The notes under the pieces were generated by a model that was not told the DNA's origin, ran no database searches, and worked only from the letters and a program-made list of their open reading frames with translations. Shown piece by piece: positions 25,689-49,103 of a DNA stretch of 64,000 bases. Within the stretch, counting starts at the first letter, position 1. Every line of letters starts with the position of its first letter. The translations under genes were made by a program, and so were the position numbers. Source of the DNA: Bradyrhizobium sp. 195 (lineage in GTDB: Bacteria; Pseudomonadota; Alphaproteobacteria; Rhizobiales; Xanthobacteraceae); NCBI RefSeq assembly GCF_023101665.1, contig NZ_CP082161.1:6014001-6078000 (forward strand). Direction: 5' to 3'.

Positions 25689-26153
25689 TCAGCGCGGAAT
25701 GACGGCGGTGGCCTCGATCTCGACGCGCGCCGCCTTCTCGACGAGGCGCACCACCTGCACCAGTGCCATCGCGGGGTAATGCGCCCCGAAAATCGCACGG
25801 TAGATCTTGCCGAGCTCCTTCAAGTTCGACAGGTACTCTTCCATGTCGACGACGTACCAGGTCAACCGCACGAGGTGCTCTGGTCGCGCACCGGCCTCGG
25901 CCATGATAGCGGCGATGTTGCTCAGGGTCTGGTGCACCTGCGCAACGAAGCCTTCCGCGAGACGCTCTTCGGCATCCCAGCCGATCACCCCGCCGGTGAC
26001 GACGATGCGGCCCTCGGCGGCCATGCCATTGGCATAGCCCTTCGGCATCGGCCACCCCGACGGCTGGAGCACCTGCACCCGCGAACGGGTGTCATCGTCG
26101 GCTGCGGTCGGCAGCACCGCGAGCTGCGGGCCCTTCGGCGTCGTCACGGGCAA
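25689..26153 (-). CDS. Rid (YjgF/YER057c/UK114) family protein
   Basis: A 154-residue Rid-fold protein, about 25 residues longer than RidA at the N-terminus. The core is recognisable (GRIVVTGGVIGWDAE, VVRLVEKAARVEIEATAVI). The position of the RidA catalytic arginine (in the PAR-x motif) appears to be methionine (YPAMALVQV), so classical 2-iminoacid deaminase activity is doubtful. It follows the aryl-CoA ligase gene by 13 bases and is surely cotranscribed with it. In this context it may act on an enamine/imine intermediate or a ring derivative. Confidence 0.85.
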   Translation of the reverse strand: MPVTTPKGPQLAVLPTAADDDTRSRVQVLQPSGWPMPKGYANGMAAEGRIVVTGGVIGWDAEERLAEGFVAQVHQTLSNIAAIMAEAGARPEHLVRLTWYVVDMEEYLSNLKELGKIYRAIFGAHYPAMALVQVVRLVEKAARVEIEATAVIPR

Positions 26154-26166
26154 TTCTCCATCCTTA

Positions 26167-27858
26167 TCATTCCACCGCGACGCCCGAGGACGTCACCGCG
26201 GCCTGCGCCAGTTGCCGCAGGGTAAAGCGCTTCAATTTTCCGGTCTCGGTCTTCGGCAGTTGCGTCACGAACTCGATCGCGCGCGGATATTTGTACGGCG
26301 CGATCTCGCGTTTGACATGTTCCTGCAACTCGGTCACCAGCTGCGCGTCCGGTGTCACGCCGGGCGCCGCGACGACATAGGCCTTCACGATCATGCCGCG
26401 CGCCTCGTCCGGGGCACCAACCACACCGCACTCGGCGACCGCCGGATGCGTGAGCAGTGCCGCCTCGACGTCCGTGCCGGCGATATTGTAGCCCGCCGAC
26501 ACGATCATGTCGTCGGAGCGGGACTGGTACCAGAAATAGCCGTCGCCATCCATCAGATAGGTGTCGCCGGTGATGTTCCAGCCGTCCTGGACGTATTTGC
26601 GCTGGCGCTCGTCGGCGAGATAGCGGCAACCGGTCGGCCCGCGCACCGCGAGCTTCCCCATGGTGCCCGGCGGAACGCCACGGCCCTCATCATCGACGAT
26701 CTTGGCTTCATAGCCCGGCACGGGCTTTCCGGTGGCGCCGGGACGGATCTCGTCCTCGGTTGCGCTGATGAAGATGTGCAGCAGCTCGGTCGAGCCGATG
26801 CCGTCCATCAGTTTGATGCCGGTGGCCTTGAGCCAGGCATCGAAGGTTGGCTTGGGCAGCGTCTCGCCTGCGGAAACACATTTGCGAAGCGAGGAGATGT
26901 CGTGGCCCGACAGCTTGCCGATCATCGCCCGGTATGCGGTCGGCGCCGTGAAGCAGACCGTGGTCTTGTATTGCTCGATCGCCGCCAGCATGTCGTCCGG
27001 CGTCGTTTTCTCCAGCACGACGAAGGAGGCGCCGATATGCATCGGAAACAGCACGCCGCCGAAGCCGAACGTGAACGCGAGCGGCGCCGAGCCGATGAAG
27101 CGATCCTTCTGCTCGGCCCGCAAGATATTGCGCGCATAGCCGTCGCAGACCGCGAGCATGTCGCGATGGAAATGCATGGTGCCTTTGGGATCGCCTGTGG
27201 TGCCCGACGTGAAAGCGATCAGGCAGACATCGTCCGAGGCGGTATCGACGGCCTTGAATTCCGCGCTAGCGCCGGCAATCAGCGCTTCGAGCGAGTCCGC
27301 CGCGCCATTGCCCCAATAAACGACCCGTCTGAGAGTCGGCGCAGCCGCTTTCGCCTTCTCCATTTCTTCGGCAAGCTTGCCGTCGCACAGCGCCAGCGCA
27401 ATCTCCGCCTTCTGAATCGGATAGGACAGCTCCTTGGCGCGGAGCAGCGGCATCGTCGCCACGACGATGCCGCCGGCCTTGATGACCGCGAGATAGGTCG
27501 CGACCATCATGGGGTTGTTGGCCGAGCGCAACAGCACGCGCCCGCCGGGGATGAGACCAAGCTCGCCGACCAGCACGTTGGCGAGGCGGTTCACGAGTGC
27601 CTGCAGCTCGCGATAGGTGTAGCTGACGGTGGGGCTGATGACGCAGGGCGCATTGCCATGCCCCTGCTCGACCCAGCGATCGAGGAAGTAGCTGACGCAA
27701 TTCAATCGAGGCGGATAGCGCAGCTCCGGCCGCGTGAAGATGAACTCGGGCCAGAGTTCGCGCGGCGGCAGATGCTGCTGCGCAAACGTATCGACATGGG
27801 CCGTCGCAGCGTTGCCGTCATGCGAGCCCGTCACTTGAACCTTGGCGGCGTTGGCCAT
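26167..27858 (-). CDS. 2-aminobenzoate/benzoate-type CoA ligase (AMP-forming)
   Basis: A 563-residue adenylate-forming ligase of the benzoate-CoA ligase family. The AMP motif FTSGTTGDPKGTMHFHRD lies near residue 215. The adenylation signature GSTELLHIF, the hinge DMIVSAGYNI, and the C-terminal lysine in PKTETGKLKRF are all present. The opening (HLPPRELWPEF..YPPRLNCVSYFLD) resembles 2-aminobenzoate-CoA ligases. It activates an aromatic acid as CoA thioester, the first step of the pathway completed by the monooxygenase/reductase at 32607. A MarR-type operator lies 50 bases upstream. Confidence 0.88.
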   Translation of the reverse strand: MANAAKVQVTGSHDGNAATAHVDTFAQQHLPPRELWPEFIFTRPELRYPPRLNCVSYFLDRWVEQGHGNAPCVISPTVSYTYRELQALVNRLANVLVGELGLIPGGRVLLRSANNPMMVATYLAVIKAGGIVVATMPLLRAKELSYPIQKAEIALALCDGKLAEEMEKAKAAAPTLRRVVYWGNGAADSLEALIAGASAEFKAVDTASDDVCLIAFTSGTTGDPKGTMHFHRDMLAVCDGYARNILRAEQKDRFIGSAPLAFTFGFGGVLFPMHIGASFVVLEKTTPDDMLAAIEQYKTTVCFTAPTAYRAMIGKLSGHDISSLRKCVSAGETLPKPTFDAWLKATGIKLMDGIGSTELLHIFISATEDEIRPGATGKPVPGYEAKIVDDEGRGVPPGTMGKLAVRGPTGCRYLADERQRKYVQDGWNITGDTYLMDGDGYFWYQSRSDDMIVSAGYNIAGTDVEAALLTHPAVAECGVVGAPDEARGMIVKAYVVAAPGVTPDAQLVTELQEHVKREIAPYKYPRAIEFVTQLPKTETGKLKRFTLRQLAQAAVTSSGVAVE

Positions 27859-27908
27859 CGCACGCTCCTTTCAGCATGGATTGCACCCGGCAGCACGATC
27901 TGGAAAAC

Positions 27909-27929
27909 ATTTTAGGCTTAAAACAATTT
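27909..27929. promoter_or_regulatory. MarR-type operator A (CoA ligase operon)
   Basis: AT-rich near-palindrome TTTTAGGCTTAAAA followed by CAATTT, 50 bases before the CoA ligase start. It matches five other sites in 28549-36836, and with the site at 34992 it also shares the trailing GCGCAA. Confidence 0.7.
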
Positions 27930-28005
27930 GGCGCAATAGCGGATTTTGGGCATGCCGTGCTTTTTCCTGCGGCAAAAGGGATTGGGCGGCCTGCCGGCCC
28001 CGTGC

Positions 28006-28536
28006 TTACGGCCGGCGGCGCGCGGCCGATTTCTGCGCCGACGCCTTGGTCTTGGCGAGGAGGCGCATCAATTCGCGCACATCCTTCGGCGAGAGATCGG
28101 CGAAGAGATCGGCGATCCAGGTCTCGTGCTCCGCAGCCATCCTGCGGAACTCGGCGCGGCCGAGCTTCGTGAGGCGGATCACCTGGACACGGCGATCCGT
28201 CTCCGAAGTACGTCGATCGAGATGGCCGGATTCCACGAGGCGCTCGACGAGACCGGTGACGTTGCCGTTCGACACCATCATCCGCTTGGAGACATCGGAC
28301 AGCGTCATGCCATCGGGCGCCTTGTCGAGCTGCGCCATCAGATCGAAGCGGGGCAGCGTGACGTCGAACCGCTGCCGCAGCCGGCCGCGAACCTCGCCCT
28401 CGATCAGGGTCGTACAGGTCAGGAGGCGCAACCACAGCCGAAGCTCTTCGGCGTGGTCTTCCGGCGTTTCGACGGCCTTGGTCTCGGAATCGAGCATCTC
28501 GGTGCGGTCACTCTCGGCGGGCATTGGCGCCGGCAC
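28006..28536 (-). CDS. MarR family transcriptional regulator of the aryl-CoA cluster
   Basis: A 176-residue MarR-fold regulator. The winged helix covers about residues 75-130 (TLSDVSKRMMVSNGNVTGLV recognition region; wing at SETDRRVQVIRLT). The C-terminus is basic. The GTG start at 28536 has GGGGA upstream. An operator copy at 28549-28569 overlaps its own start region, implying autorepression. The same sequence lies before every operon of the cluster, so this protein is the likely repressor, released by an aryl-CoA ligand as with other MarR proteins of aromatic catabolism (BadR, CouR). The ligand is inferred. Confidence 0.9.
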   Translation of the reverse strand: MPAPMPAESDRTEMLDSETKAVETPEDHAEELRLWLRLLTCTTLIEGEVRGRLRQRFDVTLPRFDLMAQLDKAPDGMTLSDVSKRMMVSNGNVTGLVERLVESGHLDRRTSETDRRVQVIRLTKLGRAEFRRMAAEHETWIADLFADLSPKDVRELMRLLAKTKASAQKSAARRRP

Positions 28537-28548
28537 GGATTCCCCAAC

Positions 28549-28638
28549 ATTTTGAGCTTCAAATAAATTGAAGCCGGCCGCAAGTCCAAAGCTGCAACAA
28601 TCGACCGCACGTGAATTTCTTTAGGCTTCAAATAATTG
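28549..28638. promoter_or_regulatory. MarR-type operators B and C
   Basis: Site B, 28549-28569 (core TTTTGAGCTTCAAATAAATT), covers the region just upstream of the marR start. Site C, 28618-28638 (core CTTTAGGCTTCAAATAATTG), faces the divergent binding-protein gene, whose start is 135 bases away. Confidence 0.7.
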
Positions 28639-28773
28639 GCGCGACGCTTGCATGCGCACTGCCGCTCGAATGGCGACGTCTTGAGCTTGCTTGCCGCGGC
28701 AGCCATCATCGGCATAAGCTTGGATCGGAGTACGCGGCCTGCAGCGCTCGCCGATAGTCACGAGGGAAAGATC

Positions 28774-29946
28774 ATGAAGACGCAAATGACCTTGGCCGCA
28801 GCCACCGTGCTGCTTGGCGCCGCGATGACCCCAGCCCTCGCCGAGGAGAAGATCAAGCTGGGCGTGATCGTGACCCTGTCGGGGCCCGCGGCCGCGCTGG
28901 GTCAGCAGGTTCGCGACGGCTTTGCGCTCGCGGTGAAGGATCTCGGCAGCAAGATGGGCGGCCGTGACGTCGAGGTCGTCGTGGTCGACGACGAACTGAA
29001 GCCGGACGCGGCGGTGACCAAGGCCAAGGGCCTCCTGGAACGCGACAAGGTCGACTTCGTGATCGGCCCGATCTTCTCCAACATCCTGCAGGCGATCCAC
29101 CGGCCCGTGACGGAATCGAAGACCTTCCTGATCAGCCCCAATGCCGGCCCGTCGACGTTCGCCGGCAAGGACTGCAACCCCTTCTTCTATGTGACCTCGT
29201 ATCAGAACGATCAGGTGCACGAGATCCTCGGCAAGGTGGCGCAGGATCGCGGCTACAAGCGCATGTACCTGATGGTGCCGAATTATCAGGCCGGCAAGGA
29301 TTCCGTGGCGGGCTTCAAGCTCGACTACAAGGGCGAGATCGTCGAGGAATCCTACATGCCGCTGAACACGCTGGACTTCCAGCCTGAGTTGTCCAAGATC
29401 TCGTCGCAGAAGCCCGATGCCCTCTTCACGTTCATGCCGGGCGGCCTCGGCGTGAATCTGGTCAAGCAATACCGGCAGGCCGGGCTCGCCGACAGCATTC
29501 CGGTGCTCTCGGCGTTCACGGTGGATGAATCGACCCTGCCGGCACAGCAGGACGCGGCCGTCGGCATGTTCGGCGGCGCGAACTGGGCTCCCAACCTCGA
29601 CAATCCCCAGAACAAGAAGTTCGTCGCCTCCTACGAGGCCGCCTACAACGTCGTGCCCGGCACCTACGCCTTCCAGGCGTATGACGCCGCGATGTTGATC
29701 GACAGTGCGGTCAAGGCCGTGAAGGGCGATCTCTCGAACAAGGACGCCGTCCGGACCGCGCTGAAGAAGGCCGACTTCACCTCGCTGCGCGGCGCCTTCA
29801 AGTTTAACACCAATGGCTATCCGATCCAGGATTTCTATCTGACCAAGGTCGCCAAGCGTTCGGACGGCAAGTTCCAGACCGAGATCGTCCAGAAGGTCTT
29901 CGAAAATTATGGCGACCGCTATGCCAAGGACTGCAAGGCGAACTAG
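28774..29946 (+). CDS. LivK-type ABC transporter substrate-binding protein
   Basis: A 390-residue type I periplasmic binding protein of the branched-chain amino acid/aromatic acid class. A signal peptide spans about residues 1-23 (TPALA cleavage). The mature part opens KIKLGVIVTLSGPAAALGQQ. The ATG at 28774 has GAGGGAAA upstream. No permease or ATPase genes of this class are in the window. Relatives bind aromatic acids, fitting uptake for the ligase pathway. The final G of its TAG stop comes from the IS element; before insertion the stop was TAA. Confidence 0.92.
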   Translation: MKTQMTLAAATVLLGAAMTPALAEEKIKLGVIVTLSGPAAALGQQVRDGFALAVKDLGSKMGGRDVEVVVVDDELKPDAAVTKAKGLLERDKVDFVIGPIFSNILQAIHRPVTESKTFLISPNAGPSTFAGKDCNPFFYVTSYQNDQVHEILGKVAQDRGYKRMYLMVPNYQAGKDSVAGFKLDYKGEIVEESYMPLNTLDFQPELSKISSQKPDALFTFMPGGLGVNLVKQYRQAGLADSIPVLSAFTVDESTLPAQQDAAVGMFGGANWAPNLDNPQNKKFVASYEAAYNVVPGTYAFQAYDAAMLIDSAVKAVKGDLSNKDAVRTALKKADFTSLRGAFKFNTNGYPIQDFYLTKVAKRSDGKFQTEIVQKVFENYGDRYAKDCKAN

Positions 29947-29959
29947 GTGGTGTGGACAC

Positions 29960-30382
29960 TTATCGCATCCATAAGACGATGGCAGCGAGGGTGACGACGG
30001 CACGGTAGTTTCGGGCGGTCTTCTCGAAGCGGGTTGCGACGCGGCGGAACTGCTTGAGTTTTGAGAAGCAGCATTCGACGAGATGGCGCTGGGCATAAAG
30101 ATGCTTGTCGAGCGGGTATTTGATCGCACGTGACGGATTGTTGGGAATGACGGCCATCGCTCCCTTGGCAGCGATGGCTTGGCGCAAGTGATCGGCATCA
30201 TAGGCCGTATCGGCCATGACGACCTCGGCGGGCAAGCCGTCGATCAATGCGGCGGCTTGCGGTGCATCACCCTTCTGACCTGCGGTAAGCATGAGCCGCA
30301 CGGGACATCCCAAGCCTCGAACGGCCATATGTATCTTGGTGCTCAGGCCCCCGCGCGAGCGGCCGATCGCTTGATCTTCCAC
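29960..30382 (-). CDS. IS5-family transposase, second reading frame
   Basis: A 140-residue C-terminal transposase part. It holds GGLSTKIHMAVRGLGCPV, the second catalytic aspartate in VMADTAYDADHLR, and the glutamate in RHLVECCFSKLKQFRRVATR with the Y-(2)-R-(3)-E-(6)-K-like region. Its frame is +1 relative to the first; a slip on the A5G5 tract would yield one full transposase. Confidence 0.9.
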   Translation of the reverse strand: MEDQAIGRSRGGLSTKIHMAVRGLGCPVRLMLTAGQKGDAPQAAALIDGLPAEVVMADTAYDADHLRQAIAAKGAMAVIPNNPSRAIKYPLDKHLYAQRHLVECCFSKLKQFRRVATRFEKTARNYRAVVTLAAIVLWMR

Positions 30383-30389
30383 TTGATCT

Positions 30390-30734
30390 TCAGACCCCCT
30401 TTTTGGCCCCGGCGGCGTGCTGATGCGCCCGAACGATGGTGGAATCGACGATCAGATATTCGAAGTCCGGATCATCAGACATCGCCTCGAAGATCCGCCA
30501 CCAAACACCCTTGATGCTCCATCGACTGAAGCGCCGGAACACGCTGTTCCAATCTCCAAACGCCTCTGGAAGATCACGCCAGGGAGAGCCTGTTCGTACG
30601 ATCCACAGCACACCTTCCACGAACATCCGGTTGTCGCGCCCGGTGGAGCCTTTCTGATCGGGGCGACCTATGATGAGCGGCGCCATCCGTTCCCACGCCG
30701 CGTCGCTCAACACCAAACGGTCCATCACACCCAA
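30390..30734 (-). CDS. IS5-family transposase, first reading frame
   Basis: A 114-residue N-terminal transposase part: DUF4096-like opening (LSDAAWERMAPLIIG), WRDLPEAFGDWNSVFRRF, and the first catalytic aspartate in YLIVDSTIVRAHQ. It ends within an A5G5 tract (30395-30404 on the complement) that likely supports programmed frameshifting into the second frame. Confidence 0.9.
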   Translation of the reverse strand: MGVMDRLVLSDAAWERMAPLIIGRPDQKGSTGRDNRMFVEGVLWIVRTGSPWRDLPEAFGDWNSVFRRFSRWSIKGVWWRIFEAMSDDPDFEYLIVDSTIVRAHQHAAGAKKGV

Positions 30735-30836
30735 GGCGGCCTCCCAAAAAGAAGCCTTGAATCTGATTTGCTCCTAAAAGGGAATCCTTAGAGTCCACAC
30801 GACCTAAGCCATGTATCGCGTTACGGGAGGACTGCA

Positions 30837-31295
30837 ATGAAGAGTGAAATCACCGGCATCACGCGGGCCAATGAAGGGATCCAGGGCATTTCCTGGAACA
30901 TCCTCGGCCAGACCTATGTGCCGAAGAGCAATACCGAGCACAGCTTCTCCTGGCATGCGACCTTGCCGCCGGGCACGTTCGTGCCGCCGCACATCCATCC
31001 CGACCAGGATGAGTATCTCTACATGCTCGAGGGCAAGCTCGACTTCGTGCTCGGCAATTCGGAGTCGCAGGCGACCGCGGGCGATTTGATCCGGCTCGGC
31101 ATGGGCGTGCCGCACGGCATCTTCAACAAGTCGGAGCAGACCGCAAAGGTGCTGTTCTGGGTGTCGCCGACCAAAAAGCTGTTCGACCTGTTCTGGGGCC
31201 TTCACAACATGAAGGAGCAGAAGCCGGAGGACGTCGTGGCGATGGCCGCCGAGTTCAACATCCACTTCCTGCCGCCGCCGCCCGGCGCCGGCTAG
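30837..31295 (+). CDS. Cupin domain-containing protein
   Basis: A 152-residue single-domain cupin. Metal-ligand motifs are visible as PPHIHPDQDEYLYMLEG (H, H, E) and GVPHGIFN (H). GGGAGG precedes the ATG at 30837. Before the IS insertion it followed the binding-protein stop by about 29 bases, so they were one operon; now the IS separates them, and its transcription may depend on the IS or read-through. It could be a small dioxygenase or isomerase of the aromatic pathway; substrate unknown. Confidence 0.85.
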   Translation: MKSEITGITRANEGIQGISWNILGQTYVPKSNTEHSFSWHATLPPGTFVPPHIHPDQDEYLYMLEGKLDFVLGNSESQATAGDLIRLGMGVPHGIFNKSEQTAKVLFWVSPTKKLFDLFWGLHNMKEQKPEDVVAMAAEFNIHFLPPPPGAG

Positions 31296-31304
31296 CGGCG
31301 CGTC

Positions 31305-32555
31305 TTACGCACGGACCGCAGCAAGTCCCGGCACGGCGGCGAAGCCGGCCTTGGTGGCATAGCCGCGTACGATCGCCTCGCGCTGGGAATAGCTCAGGAC
31401 GTTGTCGACGTTGTCGAATCCATCTGGCGCGAGCTGCTCGACGGCGTCGATGACGCCCTCGGGACCGCCGCGTCGGTTGGAGCGGACGATGTCGGCCGTC
31501 ATCGGCAGACGCTTCTTCTCGTATTCGAGCAGCGCTTGGCGCGGATGCTCGGCGCGCACCAGCGCGTCCGCAAGGCAGCGCGCATCGAGGATCGCCTGTG
31601 ACGCGCCATTGGAGCCGACCGGATACATGGGATGCGCGGCGTCGCCGAGCAGCGTGACGCGTCCGGACGACCAGTATGGCAAAGGATCGCGGTCGCAGGT
31701 CGGATATTCATAGAATTCGGGCGTCGCCGAGATCAGGCTCTTCACATCGACATAGGGCACCGAGAAGCGCGCCACGTGCGGCATCAGCTCTTCGCGGCGG
31801 CCCGGCCGCGACCAGTCTTCTTTCCGCGGCGGCGGCGCGTTGCCCTCGCCCACCTTCACCAGCACGGCCCAGTTGGTCAGGCGGCTCGCCGGGCTCGATC
31901 CTTCCGCGATCGGATAGATCACCACCTTGGCATTGAGGCCGCCGGCCACGATCATGGATTTGCCAGTGAGGAACAGCGGCCAGTCGCGCGCACCGCGCCA
32001 TAGCATCAGGCCATTCCAGCACGGCGGGCCTTCGTTCGGGAACAACGTCTCGCGGACGCGGGAATGGATGCCGTCGGCACCGATCAGGATATCGCCGCGC
32101 GCCGTGTGAATGTGCGCGCCTGCACGATCGAAGAAGTAAGCGGTGACGCCGCCCTCGTCCTGCGTGAACGCACCGAGCCGGCAGCCAGTGTGAATCGCCT
32201 CCTGACCGAGCCGTTCCTCAACGGCGCGATGGATGACGCCCTGGAGGCGGCCGCGATGGATCGAGAATTGCGGCACGTCGTGGCCGGCGTCGATGCCGCG
32301 GGCTTCGCGCCAGACCTCCTGGCCGTGGCGGTTGAGATAATAGAGCTGATCGGTGCGGATCGCGACGTCGTCGAGCTTCTGCAACAGGCCGAGACCTGCG
32401 AGCTCGCGCATCGCATGCGGCAGCGTGTTGATTCCGACGCCGAGCTCGCGAATGGTGTCGGCCTGCTCGAAGATCTCACAATCCAGCCCGCGCGAGCGCA
32501 GCATCAATGCCGTGGTGAGACCACCGATACCGCCACCGACGATAATCGCCTTCAT
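31305..32555 (-). CDS. FAD-dependent monooxygenase, PhzS-like
   Basis: A 416-residue class A flavoprotein monooxygenase. The dinucleotide motif GGGIGGL is at about residues 7-13. FAD ribityl motif VTLLGDAAHPMYPVGSNGAS lies near residue 295. The stretches ELGVGINTLPHAMREL, VWREARGIDAGHDVPQFSIHRG are closely reminiscent of PhzS, a phenazine monooxygenase, more than of salicylate hydroxylase. It probably hydroxylates an aromatic or N-heteroaromatic acid. It is 51 bases downstream of the monooxygenase/reductase gene, in the same operon under operator D. Confidence 0.88.
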   Translation of the reverse strand: MKAIIVGGGIGGLTTALMLRSRGLDCEIFEQADTIRELGVGINTLPHAMRELAGLGLLQKLDDVAIRTDQLYYLNRHGQEVWREARGIDAGHDVPQFSIHRGRLQGVIHRAVEERLGQEAIHTGCRLGAFTQDEGGVTAYFFDRAGAHIHTARGDILIGADGIHSRVRETLFPNEGPPCWNGLMLWRGARDWPLFLTGKSMIVAGGLNAKVVIYPIAEGSSPASRLTNWAVLVKVGEGNAPPPRKEDWSRPGRREELMPHVARFSVPYVDVKSLISATPEFYEYPTCDRDPLPYWSSGRVTLLGDAAHPMYPVGSNGASQAILDARCLADALVRAEHPRQALLEYEKKRLPMTADIVRSNRRGGPEGVIDAVEQLAPDGFDNVDNVLSYSQREAIVRGYATKAGFAAVPGLAAVRA

Positions 32556-32606
32556 CGCCCAAACTCCACTCGAAACACAGGCAATGGGTTAACGTCGCAC
32601 GGGCGG

Positions 32607-34958
32607 TCACTCCGCCGCAAGCGGCTTTGTCGCCTCCGCCTTGAGCTCGGCCCGGGTCTTGGGCTTAGCCTTAATGCGCAGCTCGTCGAGGTCCTGCCGA
32701 TCGCGGACGCTGTTGCGGAAAATTTGCTCTTTTCCCGGCAGATATTGTGGCGGACAGAACGCCTCGTTTGCTCCGTACCAGGCCGCCGCCTTCATGGTGA
32801 AGAACGGGTCGACCAAATGCGGGCGGCCGAGCGCGACGAGATCCGCCCGGCCGCCGGCCAGGACGGTGTTGGCCTGGTCCGCCGTCGTGATGTTGCCGAC
32901 GCACATCGTGGCCACGCGCGCCTCGTTGCGGACCTGATCCGAGAACGGTGTCTGGAACATGCGCCCATAGATCGGCTGCGCGTCGCGGACGGTCTGCCCC
33001 GTCGAGACGTCGACGAGATCGACACCGGCTTCGGCGAAGGCGCGCGCGATCGCCACCGCGTCATCGCCGGTGATGCCGCCGTCGGCCCAGTCGGTCGCAG
33101 AAATGCGCACCGACATCGGCTTGTGCGAGGGCCACACCGCCCGTAGCGCCTCGAAGATTTCGAGCGGGAAACGCAAACGGTTCTCGAGCGAGCCGCCATA
33201 CTCGTCCGTGCGGTTGTTCGTCAGCGGCGAGATGAAGCTCGCGAGCAGATAGCCGTGGGCGCAGTGCAGCTCCAGCATGTCGAAGCCGCAGCGCTCGCCG
33301 CGCTCGGCCGCCGCGACGAAAGCATCCTTCACCGCGTTCATGCCGGCACGATCGAGCTCGCGCGGCACCTGACTGTCGGGGAAATAGGGCAGCGGCGATG
33401 CCGAGAACACGTCCCAGCCGCCATCTTCCAGTGGCCGGTCCATCCCGTCCCACATCAGCTTGGTCGCGCCTTTGCGGCCGGCGTGGCCGAGTTGCAGGCA
33501 GATTTTCGCGGCCGAATTGCCGTGGACGAACTCCACGATGCGCCGCCAGGCGGCCTCCTGCTCGTCGTTCCACAAACCGGCGCAGCCGGGCGTGATGCGG
33601 GCATCGCGGCTCACGCAGGTCATCTCGGTGAAGATCAGCCCGGCGCCGCCAATCGCGCGCGAGCCATAATGCACCAGGTGGAAATCGGTCGGCACGCCTT
33701 CCTTGGCCGAATACATGCACATCGGCGACACCACGGCGCGATTGGCGAGCTTCATCTCGCGCAAGCGGAACGGCTGGAACAGCGGCACCATCGGACGGTC
33801 AGTGTCGACATCGAAGCCGCTGCCGCGCACCTGCCTGGCGAACGACTTGTCGACCTCCGCCACGAAATCCGGCGCGCGGAGCTTGAGATTGTCATAGGTG
33901 ATCGCCTTCGAACGCGTCATCACGCCGAAGGCAAACTGCACGGGATCAAAATTCCAGAAGCGATCGACATGCTCGAACCAGACCAGCGAGACGTCGGCGG
34001 CGTGCTGTGTCTTCTCGACTTCCTCACGGCGGCCATGTTCATAGAGATCGAGCGCCGCCTTGGTGCTCGGCGCGTTCTGCATGGCGTCGGCCAGCGCAAT
34101 CGCGTCTTCCATCGCGAGCTTGGTGCCGGAGCCGATCGAAAAATGCGCGCTCGCCTTGGCATCACCAAGCAGCACCATGTTGTCCTTGACCCAGCGCTTG
34201 CTGCGGATCATCGGAAAATTGCGCCACATCGAGCGATTGGTGAGCAGCTTGTGCCCGTCGAGGAACCAGCCGAAAATGTCGGCCATGCGCGCGGCGGACT
34301 GGGTCTCGTCCAGCCCGGTCAGCCCGGCCCGCTCAAAGGTCTCAGGGTCGGTCTCGAAGATCCAGGTCGAGTGTCCGACCTCATACTGATAGGCGTGGGC
34401 GATGAACGGACCCCACTCGGTCTCCTGGAAGATGAAGGTGAAGGCGTCGAGCGGCCTGGTTGAGCCCATCCAGGCGAACTTGTTGGAGCGGACGTCGACC
34501 TGCGGCTGGAAATGGTCGAGATATTTCTCCCGGAAGCGGCTGTTGATGCCGTCGGCAATCAGGATGAGATCGGCATCGGCGAAGCGGGAGTCGTCCTCGA
34601 CGTCCACCTCGAAGTGCAGGACAACGCCAAGCTCGCGGGCCCGCTCCTGGAGAATCAGAAGCAGTTTGCGCCGCGAGCAGCCGCAAAAGCCGTTACCGCC
34701 GACCCGGTGGACGGTCCCGCGAAAATGCACCGCGATGTCGTCCCAATAGGCGAATTCCTGGGTGATGCGGCGGTAGCTCGGAAGATCGTGCTTTTCGAAA
34801 TTGTCCAGCGTGGCGTCGGAGAATACCACGCCGAAACCGAACGTGTCGTCGGCCCGGTTGCGTTCATAGACCGCGACGTCGGCGCTCGGGCGCTGCTTCT
34901 TGAGCAGGATCGCAGCGTAGAGACCCGCGGGTCCGCCACCGATGATCGCGACTTTCAT
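32607..34958 (-). CDS. 2-aminobenzoyl-CoA monooxygenase/reductase-type fusion (salicylyl-CoA 5-hydroxylase family)
   Basis: A 783-residue two-domain flavoenzyme. The N-terminal half (about 1-375) is a class A FAD monooxygenase ([35 protein letters not shown]). The C-terminal half (about 385-760) is an Old Yellow Enzyme domain ([30 protein letters not shown]). This fusion is characteristic of 2-aminobenzoyl-CoA monooxygenase/reductase of aerobic anthranilate degradation and salicylyl-CoA 5-hydroxylase annotations: it hydroxylates then reduces the CoA-bound ring without aromatic ring cleavage. The ATG at 34958 has GAGG 6 bases upstream. Operator D lies 33 bases upstream. Confidence 0.9.
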
Positions 34959-34991
34959 AGGAGCCTCGCCAATCCACCCGGCCATGAAACT

Positions 34992-35012
34992 ATTTTAAGC
35001 CTAAAATAATTT
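34992..35012. promoter_or_regulatory. MarR-type operator D (monooxygenase/reductase operon)
   Basis: The most symmetric copy: TTTTAAGC-CTAAAA followed by TAATTT and GCGCAA. It is 33 bases upstream of the monooxygenase/reductase start. Confidence 0.72.
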
Positions 35013-35055
35013 CGCGCAAGTCCCCTTGCTGACGATACCGGGGAAAGGCGCCCGC

Positions 35056-35892
35056 TCAATCGCCCCTGAAGACCGGCTTGACCTTGTTGGCGAAAGCCTC
35101 GAAAGCGCGCGTGAAATCGGCCGTCGTCATGCACAGCGCTTGGGCGACGGCTTCCGCCTCGATCGCCTCCTCCACCGACATGGCCCATTCCATTGCCAGC
35201 ATCCGCTTGGTCATGGTGTTGGCGAAGGTCGGCCCTTCCGCGACCTGCTTGGCCAGCGATTGCGCCTGGGTCAGCACCTGCTCCGGCGTCACGATGCGGC
35301 TGAAGAAGCCCCAGCGCTCGCCCTCCTCCGCGGTCATGAACCGCCCAGTGTAGAGCAGCTCGGAGGCGCGGGACTGTCCGATGATCCGCGGAAGGATCGC
35401 GCAGGCGCCCATGTCGCAACCGGCGAGGCCCACCTTGTTGAACAGGAACGCGACCTTGGCCCCGCTCGCTGCGAGGCGCATATCCGATGCCATGGCGACG
35501 ATCGCACCGGCCCCGGCACAGATGCCCTCGACCGCAGCCACGATCGGCTGCGGGCAGGCCCGCATCGCCTTGACGAGGTCGCCGGTCATCCGCGTGAAGG
35601 CCATCAGCCCCTTGGTGTCCATCTTCACCAGCGGACCGATGATCTCGAACACGTCACCGCCGGACGAGAAATTACCACCGGCGCCGGTGACGACGATGGA
35701 TCTGACCTCGTCGTCGAATGCGCAAGCGCGGAAGAAGTCGGTCAGCTCCCGGTAGCTTTCGAACGTCAGTGGATTCTTTCGTTCGGGCCGGTTGAGCGTG
35801 ACCGTCGCAACGCCGTCGACCACCGCCAGCAGGAAGTGCTGCGGCGAATAGTCCGCGAGCGGAATGGTGACGGGATTTGCTGGTCTGCTCAT
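35056..35892 (-). CDS. Enoyl-CoA hydratase/isomerase family protein
   Basis: A 278-residue crotonase-fold enzyme. The oxyanion-hole strands [15 protein letters not shown] and [21 protein letters not shown] are clear. The start at 35892 is chosen by AAGGAG 6 bases upstream; a longer frame has no such site. It follows the SDR gene by 43 bases. In a 2-aminobenzoyl-CoA-type pathway it would hydrate the reduced cyclic enoyl-CoA. Confidence 0.92.
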
Positions 35893-35935
35893 GCGATCTC
35901 CTTGGCTTCCTTGTTCCGCGCCTGCGCCAGGCACG

Positions 35936-36697
35936 CTAGACCTCGCCCCCGGCCACTGCAATCGCCTGCCCTGTGATCGCACCGGCGCCTTCGCCGCACA
36001 ACCAAAGAACCGCGTCTGCCACCTCCTGAGGCGTGATCAGGCGTCCTTGCGGATTGTGCTTGGCGAGCTCTGCGATCGCCTGCTCGCGGCTACGCCCCGT
36101 CTTGGTCATGATGTTCTCGATGCTGCCGGCGACGAGATCCGTGTCCGTGAAGCCGGGACACACCGCGTTCACGGTGACATTGCTGCCGGCCATCTCGAGG
36201 GCAAGGGAACGCACGAGGCCGACCACGGCGTGCTTGGCCGCAACGTACGCACTGACATAGGCGTAGCCCTTCAACCCCGCCGTCGACGCGACCGCGACAA
36301 TACGGCCGTAGGGACGGCCCTTCATGTCCGGCAGCACGGCACGGACGGCGTGGACCACGCCCATGAAGTTGACATCCATCATGCGCGTGAAAAGAGCGGT
36401 GTCCGACTTCGCGAATGGCGCCGATTCAGCGCTGCCAGCGTTGGCAATGAGGATATCGATCGGCTGCCGCACGCTCGCCTCGGCAATGGCGGCCTTCAAT
36501 GACGCTTCGTCGGAAACATCCGCGACGGACGCAAAATGCGCGGCGCCGGCGTCGACCGCCTCTGCGAGAGTCGCCGCATTCCGGCCAAGCACGGTCACGG
36601 TGGCCCCGGCACCGACGAGAGAGGCCGCGATCGCGCGGCCGATGCCGCGACCTCCACCTGTCACCAGCGCGTGCGGCGAGTGCGGCAATCCGGACAT
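35936..36697 (-). CDS. SDR family oxidoreductase (3-hydroxyacyl-CoA dehydrogenase-like)
   Basis: A 253-residue SDR with [11 protein letters not shown] (about 14-24), NAG at the usual place (IANAGSAES), catalytic serine in VASTAGLKG and [10 protein letters not shown] (YxxxK). It should oxidise a hydroxyacyl-CoA in the ring-degradation route. First gene of the SDR-hydratase operon with operator E 39 bases upstream. Confidence 0.9.
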
Positions 36698-36736
36698 GCG
36701 CAGGCTCCCTCGGATCTCGTGATCGTTGCTCCCTAT

Positions 36737-36836
36737 ATTTTAACCTTCAAATTTTTGCAACGAAAGCGGCGGTCGCCGCCCCGAACATCACGGCACGCGA
36801 GGCGGCCCGAAAATTGCTTTAAGTATAAAATTATTG
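36737..36836. promoter_or_regulatory. MarR-type operators E and F in a divergent promoter
   Basis: Site E, 36737-36757 (core TTTTAACCTTCAAATTTTTG), faces the SDR-hydratase operon; site F, 36816-36836 (core CTTTAAGTATAAAATTATTG), lies 55 bases before the hydrolase-led operon. Each divergent unit again has its own copy. Confidence 0.68.
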
Positions 36837-36891: not shown

Positions 36892-37707
36892 GTGTCGCAG
36901 CCTGCGCCAATGATAACAAAGGACGGACGCTTCTCCTATGAAGCCGCGGGCGATCCGAACGCGACACCTCTGATCTTCCTGCATGGCATCGGTGGCGCTG
37001 CGCGAGCCTGGCGGCGCCAGCTTGCCACATTCGGGCGCCGCTTCCGCGCCATCGCGTGGGATATGCCGGGCTATGGCGGATCGGCGCCGCTTGCCAGCGT
37101 CAGCATCGCTGCCCTGGCGCAGGCGCTCCAGCAATTCATCGAGCAACTCGGGGCAACCAGACCCATTCTCGTCGGCCACTCGATCGGCGGCATGATCGTC
37201 CAGAAATGGCTGGTACAGTCCCCGAAACCGGCTCGCGCGGTCGTGCTGGCGCAGACCAGCCCCGCCTTCGGCAAGGCCGATGGCGACTGGCAGAAGTCGT
37301 TCATTGCGGCGCGGCTCGGGCCACTCGATCGCGGCGAGACGATGAAATCGCTGGCGCCGTCGCTGGTGAAAGAACTCGTCGGCGACGATCCGGATCCAAA
37401 GGGAATGGAGCTTGCGCGCGAGTGCATGGCAAGCGTGCCGGAGGCGAGCTATCGCGCCATGATGCTAGCCTTGATCGGGTTCGATCAGCGCAGCACGCTC
37501 AAGGACATCTCCGTTCCGACGTTGCTGCTGTCCGGGTCCAAGGACAACAACGCGCCGGCACCGATGATGGCGAAAACGGCGAGCTACATCCCCTCCGCCG
37601 AATATGTCGAACTGCCCGGCGTCGGCCATCTCGCCAACCTCGAGCGTCCCGATGCCTTCGACGAAGCGCTTGGCCGCTTCCTGAATTCCGTTACGACCAA
37701 AGCGTAA
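36892..37707 (+). CDS. Alpha/beta hydrolase
   Basis: A 271-residue alpha/beta hydrolase: LHGIGGAARAW (oxyanion region), nucleophile elbow GHSIGG (serine near residue 99), and catalytic histidine in LPGVGHLANLE. The GTG start has AAGGA 7 bases upstream. It leads a five-gene operon of CoA-dependent enzymes. It may hydrolyse a cyclic ketone C-C bond or a thioester; NicD-like deformylase activity is another option given the NicX-like gene nearby. Confidence 0.88.
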   Translation: MSQPAPMITKDGRFSYEAAGDPNATPLIFLHGIGGAARAWRRQLATFGRRFRAIAWDMPGYGGSAPLASVSIAALAQALQQFIEQLGATRPILVGHSIGGMIVQKWLVQSPKPARAVVLAQTSPAFGKADGDWQKSFIAARLGPLDRGETMKSLAPSLVKELVGDDPDPKGMELARECMASVPEASYRAMMLALIGFDQRSTLKDISVPTLLLSGSKDNNAPAPMMAKTASYIPSAEYVELPGVGHLANLERPDAFDEALGRFLNSVTTKA

Positions 37708-37719
37708 GGTGACGACGCG

Positions 37720-39009
37720 ATGACCATGCAAGTCAGCAAGACCATCGGCGCGAGTAACAAGGTGGCGCTGGATGCGCCGATCTTCGATCCCGTCGCATTC
37801 CGCCTGAACGACGAGCAGGCCGGCATCATCGCGCGCGCCCGCGAGATCGGCCAGAGCGTGTTCGCCGCTCGCGCCGCCGCTTACGATCGCGAGGCGATCT
37901 TTCCGGTCGAGAACTACCGCGACCTGCACCGCGTCGGCCTGCTTGGCATCGCCGTTCCCAAGAAACACGGCGGGCTCGGCGCGAACTACCAGACATACGC
38001 CTTGGCGGCGGCCGAGATCGGCCGCTATTGCGGTGCGACCGCGCTGACCTGGAACATGCATGTCTGCTCGACCCTGTGGTCGGGCCCACTCGCCGACGAC
38101 CTCGACATGGACGCCGAAACCCGGGCTGAGCACGAGCGGCGTCGGGCGGTGCACTACAACCGCATCATCGATGACGGCGCGATCTATTCGCAGCCTTTCT
38201 CGGAGGGTGGTGCGGCCGCCGCCGGCGGCGTCGCCTTCGGCACGGAAGCAAAACCCGTGGAAGGCGGCTGGATCGTCAACGGCAAGAAGATCTTTGCATC
38301 GCTCTCCGGCCACGCCGACTATTACGGCGTGCTTTGCACCGAGATCGAGGAAGGCGAGAAGGCATCGCGCCGCAACACGCTTTATCTCGCCATCTCCGCC
38401 AAATCGGACGGCGTCTCGGTCGTCGGCGACTGGGATCCGCTCGGCATGCGCGGTACGGTTTCGCGGACGCTTCTTTTCAAGGATGTGTTTGTACCTGGCG
38501 ATTCTGCGCTGATGCCGCGCGGCGTCTATTTCCAGGCCGCGATGCGCTGGCCGCACATGTTCCTGACGTTGTCGCCGACCTATATGGGCCTGGCGCAAGC
38601 CGCCTACGATTTCACCGTGCGATACTTGCGCGGCGAAGTGCCGGGCATGCCGCCGGTCAAGCGGCGGATGTACCCGACCAAGCAGATCGCGGTCGCGCAG
38701 ATGCAGATCAAGCTCGAACAGATCAAGGCGATCTGGTTCCAGGCCGTCACCGAAGCGTGCGCCAATCCGAGCAAGGAACAGGTGCTGCGAGCCTATGCCG
38801 CGCAATATTCGGTGATGGAGGGCGCCAACGAGCTCGCCGCGCTCGCGATCCGCACCTGCGGCGGTCAGGCCATGCTTCGCTCGCTGCCGCTGGAGCGGAT
38901 CTATCGCGACAGCCGCTGCGGCTCGCTGATGCTGCCCTGGACTGCCGAATTGTGCCTCGACCGGATCGGACGCGAGGCGCTGTATGAGGCTGGCGAGACG
39001 GACGACTGA
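37720..39009 (+). CDS. Acyl-CoA dehydrogenase family protein
   Basis: A 429-residue flavoprotein of the acyl-CoA dehydrogenase fold. An N-terminal helical domain, a mid beta domain with IYSQPFSEGGAAAAGG, and a C-terminal helical domain with RTCGGQAMLRSLPLERIYRD are visible. It introduces a double bond alpha-beta to a CoA thioester. It is 12 bases after the hydrolase and 2 bases before the ligase gene. Confidence 0.9.
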   Translation: MTMQVSKTIGASNKVALDAPIFDPVAFRLNDEQAGIIARAREIGQSVFAARAAAYDREAIFPVENYRDLHRVGLLGIAVPKKHGGLGANYQTYALAAAEIGRYCGATALTWNMHVCSTLWSGPLADDLDMDAETRAEHERRRAVHYNRIIDDGAIYSQPFSEGGAAAAGGVAFGTEAKPVEGGWIVNGKKIFASLSGHADYYGVLCTEIEEGEKASRRNTLYLAISAKSDGVSVVGDWDPLGMRGTVSRTLLFKDVFVPGDSALMPRGVYFQAAMRWPHMFLTLSPTYMGLAQAAYDFTVRYLRGEVPGMPPVKRRMYPTKQIAVAQMQIKLEQIKAIWFQAVTEACANPSKEQVLRAYAAQYSVMEGANELAALAIRTCGGQAMLRSLPLERIYRDSRCGSLMLPWTAELCLDRIGREALYEAGETDD

Positions 39010-39011
39010 TC

Positions 39012-40547
39012 GTGGACCTTTGCAGTCTGATCGATCGCAACGCGGCGTTCGCGCCAGACAAGACGGCCATTGCCTTCGAAGGGGAACGGCTGAGCTATGC
39101 GGCTTTCGCCGCGCGCATCGAGCGGACCGCTACGGCATTGAAGCAGCAGATCGGCGTCGGCCGCGGCGACCGCGTTGCCATCCTCAGTCTGAATCGGCCG
39201 GACTATCTGGTTCTGCTTTATGCCTGCGCGCGACTTGGCGCGATGCTGGTGCCGCTGAACTGGCGCCTCGCCGTCGCCGAGCAACTCTTCATTCTCAATG
39301 ACGCAGGCGCCAAGGTGCTGGTGCTCGAGCAGGCCTTTGAGGGCGTTGTTTCCGAGCTCGGGCGGACCGCGCCGGGGACGGCGGTCGTCGGCCTCGACTT
39401 TGCGCCGCCTCGCGGCACGACATTGGAAAGCCTGCTGACGCGCAGCGACGGCACCAGCCGAAATCCGCACACCGATCTCTCCTGCCCGCTGCTCATCGTC
39501 TACACATCAGGAACAACCGGGCGACCGAAAGGCGCGGTGCTGCGCCAGGAGGCGCTGTTCTGGAATGGCGTGATGAGCCAGCACATGCACAACATGACGT
39601 CCGATGACCATGTGCTGACCGTGCTGCCATTCTTCCACGTCGGTGGCCTCAATATCCAGACGACACCCGCGCTGCAGCTTGGCGCGACCGTCACGGTCCA
39701 CGCGCGTTTTGCGCCGGAAACTGCGCTTGCGGCCATCGAACAGGAACGGCCGACACTCACCGTGATGGTGCCTGCGATCATCCAGGCAGTGAGCGAGCAT
39801 CCCGCCTGGGCGACTGCGGATCTTTCGTCGCTCAAGGCCGTCGCCACCGGCTCGACCATCGTGCCGCCGCACCTGATCGAGCGTTTCCTCGCGCGCGATG
39901 TCCCGGTGCTTCAGGTCTACGGCTCGACCGAAACCTGCCCGATCGCGGTCTACACGCGGCTTGGCGGCGACCTTTCGCGCGCGGGATCGACCGGCCTTGC
40001 CGGCCTGTGCTGCGAAGCGAAGGTGGTCGATCATTCCGGCAACGAGGTGCCAGCGGGCACGCCGGGCGAGATCGCGGTGCGCGGAGCCAACGTGTTCTTC
40101 GAATATTGGGGTAACGAGACCGCGACGCGCGACGCATTGCACGACGGCTGGTATCGCACCGGCGATATCGGCTTGTGCGACGCCGACGGCTATTTCTGGG
40201 TGCGCGACCGCAAGAAGAACATGATCATTTCGGGGGGCGAGAACGTTTACCCGGCGGAGGTCGAGCGCGTCCTGCTCGAACACCCCGATGTCAGCGAATG
40301 CGCCGTGATCGGCCGGCCGGACCCGCGCTGGGACGAGGTCCCGATCGCCTATGTCATCCCCCGATCCGGCTGCCGGCTCGAAGCGAACGAGCTGACAGCC
40401 CATCTCCAGGCGCAACTCGCCCGCTACAAGGTGCCGCGCGACATCGTCTTCGTCACCGACCTGCCGCGCACGGCGCTGGGAAAGGTCCAGCATTTCCTGC
40501 TGAAACAACTTGATGCGCAGTCCCGCGCGCAAGGAGAAGCATCTTGA
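39012..40547 (+). CDS. AMP-dependent acyl-CoA synthetase
   Basis: A 511-residue class I adenylate-forming ligase: YTSGTTGRPKGAVLRQEALF, adenylation motif YGSTETCP, hinge DRKKNMIISGGENVYPAEVE, and lysine in LPRTALGKVQHF. A second ligase beside the benzoate-type one suggests activation of a downstream or alternative (aliphatic or cyclic) acid. The GTG start lies 2 bases after the previous stop, and its end overlaps the next gene by 4 bases. Confidence 0.92.
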   Translation: MDLCSLIDRNAAFAPDKTAIAFEGERLSYAAFAARIERTATALKQQIGVGRGDRVAILSLNRPDYLVLLYACARLGAMLVPLNWRLAVAEQLFILNDAGAKVLVLEQAFEGVVSELGRTAPGTAVVGLDFAPPRGTTLESLLTRSDGTSRNPHTDLSCPLLIVYTSGTTGRPKGAVLRQEALFWNGVMSQHMHNMTSDDHVLTVLPFFHVGGLNIQTTPALQLGATVTVHARFAPETALAAIEQERPTLTVMVPAIIQAVSEHPAWATADLSSLKAVATGSTIVPPHLIERFLARDVPVLQVYGSTETCPIAVYTRLGGDLSRAGSTGLAGLCCEAKVVDHSGNEVPAGTPGEIAVRGANVFFEYWGNETATRDALHDGWYRTGDIGLCDADGYFWVRDRKKNMIISGGENVYPAEVERVLLEHPDVSECAVIGRPDPRWDEVPIAYVIPRSGCRLEANELTAHLQAQLARYKVPRDIVFVTDLPRTALGKVQHFLLKQLDAQSRAQGEAS

Positions 40548-41632: not shown

Positions 41633-41635
41633 TCG

Positions 41636-48937: not shown

Positions 48938-49103
48938 CGTGCCCACTCCGCTGCTCCGGCGCCGACCGGCGCCACCCAATCCGACTGCCGCAAATGTTTC
49001 ATGGTTCAAACAATCAGGCAAGCCATGCGAGCCGGGCGGTTTCGCCGTTAGGCGCGCAATGTATGGTAAAGCGGCGTTGCGCTGCGACAGAAGGAGGCAA
49101 CCT

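What the first reader, a model, noticed from the sequence alone, without database searches (positions are those of the whole stretch)
27909..36836. Six matching operators define a single MarR regulon over an aryl-CoA cluster
Six AT-rich 21-base near-palindromes (27909, 28549, 28618, 34992, 36737, 36816) share TTTTAAGC/GCTTNAAA plus a trailing TAATT. Each sits before a different transcription unit: the ligase-Rid operon, marR itself, the LivK-type binding protein, the monooxygenase/reductase operon, the SDR-hydratase operon and the hydrolase-led five-gene operon. Every unit start in 25.7-42.6 kb has exactly one. This fixes the membership of the pathway from the sequence alone and names the MarR protein at 28006 as the probable regulator.
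Basis: partly seen in the sequence, partly recalled or inferred. Interest (0 to 1): 0.85.

Follow-up and report, generated by a model that had tools for sequence, protein, structure and literature searches.

The report
MarR operators link tryptophan to anthranilate-CoA
Six matching DNA switches sit before six transcription units of an anthranilate-CoA breakdown cluster in a Bradyrhizobium-like genome, and the same switch, conserved in relatives, also stands before the distant tryptophan-to-anthranilate operon, so one repressor probably runs the whole route from tryptophan.

Summary
The six sites are real, at the stated places, and far beyond chance: left out one at a time, each ranks first in the window. 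A matrix built only from the six finds the site before most orthologues in 80 related loci (ligase 76/78, binding protein 77/77, marR 75/80, monooxygenase 59/62, SDR 55/68, hydrolase 41/42) and before none of seven control genes.

The regulon is larger than the window. Two more operators, weak alone but conserved in relatives, stand before a hydrolase/tryptophan 2,3-dioxygenase/kynureninase operon 1.87 Mb away and in a cupin-monooxygenase/AraC module 3.8 Mb away. In a sister clade both modules lie inside the cluster. This points to anthranilate as substrate: a tryptophan-anthranilate-2-aminobenzoyl-CoA regulon, probably repressed by the MarR protein. The inducer, perhaps 2-aminobenzoyl-CoA, is inferred only.

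'Exactly one site per unit' fails for the cupin gene, which an inserted element separates from its probable operon. A new member of a known kind; ten paper searches found no description of it.

The parts
27905..27928 (.). operator 1, before ligase-RidA operon (AAACATTTTAGGCTTAAAACAATT)
   Evidence: a site before 76 of 78 orthologues
28545..28568 (.). operator 2, before marR (CAACATTTTGAGCTTCAAATAAAT)
   Evidence: a site in the marR upstream stretch of 75 of 80 (that stretch can hold operator 2 or 3)
28614..28637 (.). operator 3, marR / binding-protein intergenic region (AATTTCTTTAGGCTTCAAATAATT)
   Evidence: a site in the binding-protein upstream stretch of 77 of 77 (operator 2 or 3)
34988..35011 (.). 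operator 4, before monooxygenase/reductase operon (AACTATTTTAAGCCTAAAATAATT)
   Evidence: 59 of 62
36733..36756 (.). operator 5, before SDR-hydratase operon (CTATATTTTAACCTTCAAATTTTT)
   Evidence: 55 of 68 (stretch can hold operator 5 or 6)
36812..36835 (.). operator 6, before hydrolase-led five-gene operon (AATTGCTTTAAGTATAAAATTATT)
   Evidence: 41 of 42 (operator 5 or 6)
28006..28536 (-). MarR-family regulator (GTG at 28536; a good part of the relatives align only from residue 13-14, so ATG at 28497 is a likely true start)
   Evidence: Pfam MarR_2 and MarR above gathering score; matches at E <= 1e-20 in 102 of 149 related genomes
26167..27858 (-). aryl-CoA ligase, probably 2-aminobenzoate-CoA ligase (substrate inferred)
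   Evidence: TIGR02262 385 bits, cut-off 375
25689..26153 (-). RidA-family (enamine/imine deaminase-like) protein
   Evidence: PF01042
28774..29946 (+). branched-chain-type ABC substrate-binding protein
   Evidence: PF13458; start chosen at the signal-peptide-like MKTQMTLAAATVLLGAAM (inference)
29941..30800 (.). inserted element with a DDE transposase piece (29960-30382, -) and a second open frame (30390-30734, -), between binding-protein and cupin genes; IS5-like by recall
   Evidence: break of alignment with L031, L033, L040, L055, right edge 30800-30820; DDE_Tnp_1
30837..31295 (+). cupin, in most relatives right behind the binding-protein gene; no operator of its own
31305..32555 (-). FAD monooxygenase (NF005720, PRK07538 type), follows the monooxygenase/reductase gene
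32607..34958 (-). bifunctional flavin monooxygenase/oxidoreductase, 2-aminobenzoyl-CoA monooxygenase/reductase type (substrate inferred)
   Evidence: NF006101 1136 bits, cut-off 1078
35056..35892 (-). enoyl-CoA hydratase family protein (NF006107)
35936..36697 (-). SDR dehydrogenase
36892..37707 (+). alpha/beta hydrolase, first gene of five-gene operon
37720..42628 (+). rest of that operon: acyl-CoA dehydrogenase-like, acyl-CoA ligase, octopine-dehydrogenase-like, 3-hydroxyacyl-CoA dehydrogenase (NF006125)

Best explanation
The sites are operators of one regulon. The MarR protein encoded at 28006-28536 probably binds, as a dimer, a 24-bp dyad (AATTAYTTTAAG|CTTAAARTAATT) that overlaps the spacer and -10 region of promoters, and so represses them. 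The regulon takes tryptophan to anthranilate (kyn operon, elsewhere in the genome), anthranilate to 2-aminobenzoyl-CoA (ligase), and that through the flavin monooxygenase/reductase, hydratase, SDR, RidA and the five-gene operon towards central metabolism; a binding protein may help uptake. The inducer is perhaps 2-aminobenzoyl-CoA, made by the regulon's own ligase. Shown by sequence: the sites, their conservation, the two extra loci. Inferred: binding by this MarR, repression, the inducer, the order of the enzyme steps. The confidence given is for one MarR-controlled regulon joining kyn and anthranilate-CoA genes, not for the inducer.
For: Six sites verbatim, each first in leave-one-out. A matrix from the six alone finds sites before 76/78, 75/80, 77/77, 59/62, 55/68 and 41/42 orthologues, and 0/68, 0/73, 0/71, 0/67, 0/41, 0/37, 0/25 before seven control genes. 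Whole-genome scan: the six, then C1:4176077 (18.0 bits) and C1:2241953 (14.4 bits). C1:4176077 precedes hydrolase-TDO-kynureninase; a site of at least 20 bits lies within 300 bp of that hydrolase's start in 54 of 57 genomes examined, own included. C1:2241953 stands between cupin-FMO and AraC genes; conserved in 30 of 30 loci returned, own included. In a sister clade both modules lie inside the marR cluster; there the module-3 site is present in 10 of 11 fully covered G-handle loci and in 5 of 5 named ones (L085, L088, L089, L092, L097). In other families the site is present in 9 clusters with recognition helix (S/T)(N/A)GN and absent in 3 with (S/T)GGN. A TTGC(GC)-16 bp-TAAAAT element overlaps the operator in the ligase and monooxygenase promoters of relatives. 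Of 20 genomes scanned, the one without hits is the one without this MarR.
Against: No binding or expression data. The two distant sites are weak on their own in the genome scan (E 0.04 and 0.6), and in the six-site pattern scan the three hits outside the cluster equal the three of the reversed control pattern; their case rests on conservation. G065 has the MarR and kyn genes but no site by them (L168); G012 has only a 16-bit one. G054 (L176) has no module-3 site of 12 bits, L071 none of 20. Operators were also missed at some cluster genes of relatives (monooxygenase L096, L103, L110; ligase L104, L109; hydrolase L077). Some relatives have further hits by genes I did not identify. G016 has kyn and module-3 sites without a MarR match (incomplete assembly). 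NCBIfam names the monooxygenase salicylyl-CoA 5-hydroxylase and the kyn-operon hydrolase a hormone-sensitive lipase, so the substrate and the formamidase step are inferred.
Confidence: 0.87

Rival explanations
1. Same regulon and repressor, but the effector is free anthranilate, kynurenine or another intermediate rather than 2-aminobenzoyl-CoA.
For: A free carboxylate, IAA, is the effector of IadR-type MarR proteins (PMC9613470, passages). The sequence does not decide. KynR is called a kynurenine-responsive regulator in PMC12164975 (abstract start in search listing).
Against: The genes most constant in clusters with the site are ligase, monooxygenase, SDR, hydratase and RidA; kyn genes are often elsewhere, which favours a ligand made or used by that core. 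CouR answers to p-coumaroyl-CoA and not to the free acid (PMC4737184, passages).
Confidence: 0.45
2. The cluster serves salicylate or another hydroxybenzoate through salicylyl-CoA 5-hydroxylase, and the kyn link is secondary.
For: NF006101 names the enzyme bifunctional salicylyl-CoA 5-hydroxylase/oxidoreductase.
Against: The operator and, in a sister clade and in other families, the gene neighbourhood tie the cluster to tryptophan 2,3-dioxygenase and kynureninase, which make anthranilate. A RidA-type protein behind the ligase fits removal of an amino group (inference). No gentisate dioxygenase was named among the cluster genes scanned.
Confidence: 0.07
3. Another regulator that recognises the same dyad, such as a paralogous MarR, controls some or all sites.
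For: A relative, G061, carries a second MarR (50% identical) beside a second monooxygenase with the same operator (L232).
Against: The window's genome has only one MarR match at E <= 1e-20, and it is the one inside the cluster with its own operator.
Confidence: 0.06
4. The sites are AT-rich promoter elements and not a regulator's operators.
For: They overlap promoter-like hexamers.
Against: 24-bp dyad with both arms conserved; none before the seven control genes; no shuffle of the own kyn or module-3 promoter regions reached 20 bits in 5000 each; the site follows the MarR recognition helix across families.
Confidence: 0.02

Closest known systems
CouR of Rhodococcus jostii RHA1 (MarR repressor answering to p-coumaroyl-CoA; PMC4737184, passages seen)
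   Same: MarR-family protein encoded in an aromatic-acid cluster; inverted-repeat boxes at several promoters including its own; acyl-CoA made by the pathway as the (here only proposed) effector
   Different: Box there is cATTGA-N5-TCAATg overlapping -35; here a 24-bp AATTAYTTTAAGCTTAAARTAATT dyad overlapping spacer and -10-like hexamer. This regulon lies in three places of the chromosome. No biochemistry here.
2-aminobenzoyl-CoA (abm) pathway of aerobic anthranilate use, first described in Azoarcus evansii (recalled); abm and kyn genes are both listed for Cupriavidus metallidurans CH34 (PMC8879955, passages)
   Same: CoA ligase (abmG), bifunctional flavin monooxygenase/reductase, beta-oxidation-type enzymes
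   Different: The passages seen give gene content only, and strain CH34 did not grow on anthranilate as sole carbon source. An operator shared by kyn and abm genes was not described in the papers found.
IadR / IadR2 MarR proteins of auxin (iad) loci (PMC9613470, passages)
   Same: MarR family; iad loci degrade IAA to anthranilic acid, the proposed substrate of this cluster; no ligand or DNA site was found for IadR2 there
   Different: No iad oxygenase was named among the window cluster genes scanned, and the window MarR's PDB matches at 1e-6 do not include 3CDH. Whether IadR2 belongs to the same subfamily was not tested.
KynR, a kynurenine-responsive regulator (PMC12164975, abstract start in search listing; Lrp/AsnC type recalled)
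   Same: Tied to tryptophan breakdown through kynurenine
   Different: Different protein family (recalled); here a MarR appears to control kyn genes together with the anthranilate-CoA route

Membership tests
MarR-family repressor of an aromatic acyl-CoA pathway | MarR winged-helix domain | tested here: met
   Pfam MarR_2 46.8 and MarR 39.0 bits, above gathering scores
MarR-family repressor of an aromatic acyl-CoA pathway | Inverted-repeat operator before own gene and pathway genes | tested here: met
MarR-family repressor of an aromatic acyl-CoA pathway | Binds these operators | not testable with these tools
   only co-occurrence of recognition helix and site
MarR-family repressor of an aromatic acyl-CoA pathway | Released by an aryl-CoA | not testable with these tools
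   none
2-aminobenzoyl-CoA (abm) pathway | aryl-CoA ligase plus bifunctional flavin monooxygenase/oxidoreductase in one cluster | tested here: met
   TIGR02262 and NF006101 above cut-off
2-aminobenzoyl-CoA (abm) pathway | Substrate is 2-aminobenzoate | tested here: inconclusive
   indirect: shared operator and, in other species, neighbourhood with kynureninase and TDO
IadR2 group of auxin loci | Lies in an iad locus | tested here: not met
   no iad oxygenase or indolepyruvate oxidoreductase named among the cluster genes scanned in the window
Kynurenine (tryptophan to anthranilate) operon | tryptophan 2,3-dioxygenase and kynureninase | tested here: met
   TIGR03036 434 bits (cut-off 391) and TIGR01814 271 bits (cut-off 246)

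The most novel reading that the evidence does not exclude
One MarR protein senses 2-aminobenzoyl-CoA and controls the whole route from tryptophan (and, through anthranilate, perhaps from auxin) to central metabolism in Bradyrhizobium and relatives, as a regulon that is contiguous in one clade and scattered over millions of bases in another while keeping its operator. The same ligand class could explain the orphan IadR2 regulators of auxin loci.
Probability: 0.35. Interest if true: 0.65.

Novelty: new member of a known kind. Interest (0 to 1): 0.5.

Why it matters
It turns a local motif into a defined, testable regulon, and shows by conservation that tryptophan breakdown and the anthranilate-CoA route are wired together in a large group of soil bacteria. 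It gives an exact operator, a promoter geometry, a candidate repressor and a candidate inducer. It also places two flavin monooxygenases and two cupins of unknown role in or beside the same regulon. Anthranilate is where tryptophan breakdown meets bacterial auxin (IAA) breakdown in B. japonicum (PMC9613470, passages), so the effector question may bear on root signalling as well.

Tried and rejected
A consensus pattern from the six sites gave three hits outside the cluster: the kyn site and two (C1:7983401, C2:42580) with no match of 12 bits or more to the relatives' matrix (L124, L125), dropped. The reversed control pattern also gave three hits, so alone proves nothing about distant sites.

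Window site 48992 (AAATGTTTCATGGTTCAAACAATC, 25 bits) was considered as a seventh site. Its core, TTTGAACCATGAAA, is kept in 29 of 30 loci, own included, without the AAGCTT-type centre, and the covariance model does not list it at E <= 10. I take it for another regulator's site.

Idea that the paralogous MarR cluster of G061 (L232) is the auxin IadR2 locus: genes that look like iadA/iadB and two MarR genes lie about 25-30 kb further on (L238, by eye only). A protein there that resembles isatin hydrolase by eye had no PDB match at 1e-10 and no NCBIfam match at 1e-60. Left as a lead.

Counts and rows dropped. In one search a row needed identity of at least 45%, a match starting at residue 25 or earlier, and the stretch inside the locus. 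The 80 loci are the best 80 of 549 confirmed. Of 80 non-redundant 24-mers, 66 went into the model; I left out 14, weaker or odder ones, by hand. That training set includes kyn and module-3 sites of the sister clade, so one search is not independent of them; and one search are. Of 57 genomes with the kyn hydrolase I examined 56 (G030 not) and added G086, picked for its MarR cluster: 54 of 57 have the site, G012, G065 and G131 do not reach 20 bits. Two more kyn sites, in G015 and G077, came from following model hits and are left out of that count. Of 46 genomes with FMO2 the 30 loci returned were scored, plus the sister-clade clusters. Of 13 SDR misses, three (L107, L108, L110) have SDR inside a gene row and ten have the divergent enzyme set. 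One search listed only part of its matches, and model searches scored 150 candidates per genome.

Not done: structure prediction, because it would not settle the ligand.


Full report
The observation. Matrices built from any five rank the sixth first among the remaining positions of the 64-kb window. The genes were identified by profile: ligase (TIGR02262), RidA (PF01042), MarR, a Peripla_BP_6 binding protein, a cupin, an FAD monooxygenase, the bifunctional monooxygenase/oxidoreductase NF006101, hydratase NF006107, SDR, an alpha/beta hydrolase, an acyl-CoA dehydrogenase-like protein, a second ligase, an octopine-dehydrogenase-like protein and the hydroxyacyl-CoA dehydrogenase NF006125. Each site precedes one unit. 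The marR/binding-protein region and the SDR/hydrolase region hold two sites each.

Independent test in relatives. 80 named loci around the MarR gene were fetched (Bradyrhizobium, Tardiphaga, Microvirga and a few others). A matrix from the six window sites alone (threshold 17) was run on 270 bp around each orthologue's start: ligase 76/78, marR 75/80, binding protein 77/77, monooxygenase 59/62, SDR 55/68, hydrolase 41/42. Controls inside operons or next door: RidA 0/68, cupin 0/73, FMO 0/71, hydratase 0/67, acyl-CoA dehydrogenase 0/41, second ligase 0/37, PHA synthase 0/25. Neighbouring divergent genes share one stretch, so these are not all separate sites; 35 of 80 loci hold six, some being cut by contig ends. 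In Microvirga the genes are rearranged, with marR and SDR inside a gene row. Sites of 15 bits or more stand only in the binding-protein/ligase region (L107, L108, L110) and before the monooxygenase (L107, L108, not L110).

The true operator. 152 distinct 21-mers with their flanks show a 24-bp dyad: AAWT arm on the left, a TTTARGCTTMAA core, a YAATT arm on the right. The majority consensus of 66 sites is AATTATTTTAAGCTTAAAATAATT. In relatives' ligase and monooxygenase promoters the operator covers the spacer and -10 of a TTGC(GC)-16 bp-TAAAAT element; repression by blocking the promoter follows as inference.

Two more operators in the genome. A sequence-only model of the 66 sites was run over the whole 9.14-Mb genome (150 of 476 first-look candidates scored). 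It gives the six, then C1:4176077 (18.0 bits) and C1:2241953 (14.4 bits). The first lies before a hydrolase, tryptophan 2,3-dioxygenase (TIGR03036) and kynureninase (TIGR01814); NCBIfam calls the hydrolase a hormone-sensitive lipase, and its role as formamidase is inferred from the operon. The site was also among the three outside hits of the plain six-site pattern, though that pattern's control gave as many. The second lies between a cupin-FMO pair and an AraC-type gene.

Conservation decides. Of 57 genomes examined (own included), 54 have a site of at least 20 bits within 300 bp of the kyn hydrolase's start; G012 has 16.2, G065 and G131 none, and G131 is not among the genomes with a MarR match. 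All 30 module-3 loci returned have a site between cupin and AraC (21.4-34.7 bits). Shuffled own kyn and module-3 regions reach at most 15.4 and 16.5 bits in 5000 shuffles each, against 33.1 and 30.3 observed. In a sister clade (for example B. valentinum L085, B. retamae L088, L089, L092, L097; L170, L172, L174-L182) the kyn genes and module 3 lie within the marR cluster with operators of their own; the module-3 site is there in 5 of 5 of the named loci and 10 of 11 of the others, L176 being the exception. L071, where the module sits at the edge, shows none of 20 bits. A regulon that is contiguous there lies in three places here.

The regulator. Outside the genus, clusters of monooxygenase, SDR, MarR, hydratase, ligase and RidA recur, some with TDO or kynureninase. 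The site (20 bits or more) is found in L183-L187, L189, L190, L192 and L167, whose recognition helix (placed by general knowledge of the family) reads (S/T)(N/A)GN. It is not found at 12 bits in L191, L193 and L194, which read (S/T)GGN. L195 is cut before the promoter, and L188 has no abm genes near. The groups also differ by descent, so this is support and not proof. Of 20 genomes scanned, the one without hits, G041, is the one without this MarR. G016 has kyn and module-3 sites but no MarR match; it is 89% complete in 720 contigs.

The cupin gene has no operator. In 68 of 73 relatives it follows the binding-protein gene by 19-159 bp on the same strand; in five, 3.5-3.8 kb lie between. Here an inserted element of about 860 bp with a DDE transposase piece lies between them, so its control may be broken in this strain.

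Substrate and effector. The link to kynureninase makes anthranilate the likely substrate, against the salicylyl name of the enzyme model. A RidA-type deaminase fits an aminated intermediate. 2-Aminobenzoyl-CoA as effector follows the CouR precedent (PMC4737184, passages) and the genes most constant in the clusters; free anthranilate or kynurenine remains about as likely.

Literature. Ten full-text searches listed no paper that, by title and start of abstract, describes a MarR regulon of kyn and 2-aminobenzoyl-CoA genes. Most subscription papers are not held. PMC9613470 (passages) reports that iad auxin loci make anthranilic acid and that no ligand or DNA site was found for IadR2.

Noticed in passing
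window 29941-30800: Inserted element with a DDE transposase piece (IS5-like by recall) just after the binding-protein stop codon, absent in four relatives compared; it separates the cupin gene from the binding-protein gene.
   Followed up: partly
window 48992-49015: A second near-palindrome, core TTTGAACCATGAAA, kept in 29 of 30 loci, before a gene starting near 49100 whose product resembles 3-hydroxyisobutyrate dehydrogenase (by eye); probably another regulator's site.
   Followed up: partly
G000:C1:2239774-2243023 (L123): Cupin, FMO-like monooxygenase and AraC regulator module with the operator; role in tryptophan/anthranilate breakdown unknown.
   Followed up: partly
L084, L086, L087, L090, L091, L093, L094, L098, L099, L101: Same MarR, binding protein, cupin and FMO (about 77-88% identical) but a divergent enzyme set (monooxygenase about 52%, SDR 53-58%, hydratase about 60%, RidA 43-49%); enzymes seem replaced under the same control.
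   Followed up: no
L232 and L238 (genome G061): Second MarR (50% identical), second NF006101 monooxygenase and RidA with the same operator, about 25-30 kb from genes that look by eye like iadA/iadB with two further MarR genes.
   Followed up: partly
L080, L081, L100, L102, L104: 3.5-3.8 kb lie between binding-protein and cupin genes; what is encoded there was not looked at.
   Followed up: no
L043: Record titled Frankia sp. RB7 carries this cluster at Bradyrhizobium-like identity (MarR 95-96%); probably mislabelled or contaminated.
   Followed up: no
G036:C1:3217454, G021:C1:4169179, G025:C1:5283045, G062:C1:3889209, G086:C1:2814816 and 2822254, G054:C1:3626012 and 3633693: Further operator-like hits in relatives whose neighbouring genes were not identified.
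   Followed up: no
window 42625-43671: 348-aa protein with no Pfam or NCBIfam match at 1e-3, between the cluster and a TauABC-type transporter.
   Followed up: no
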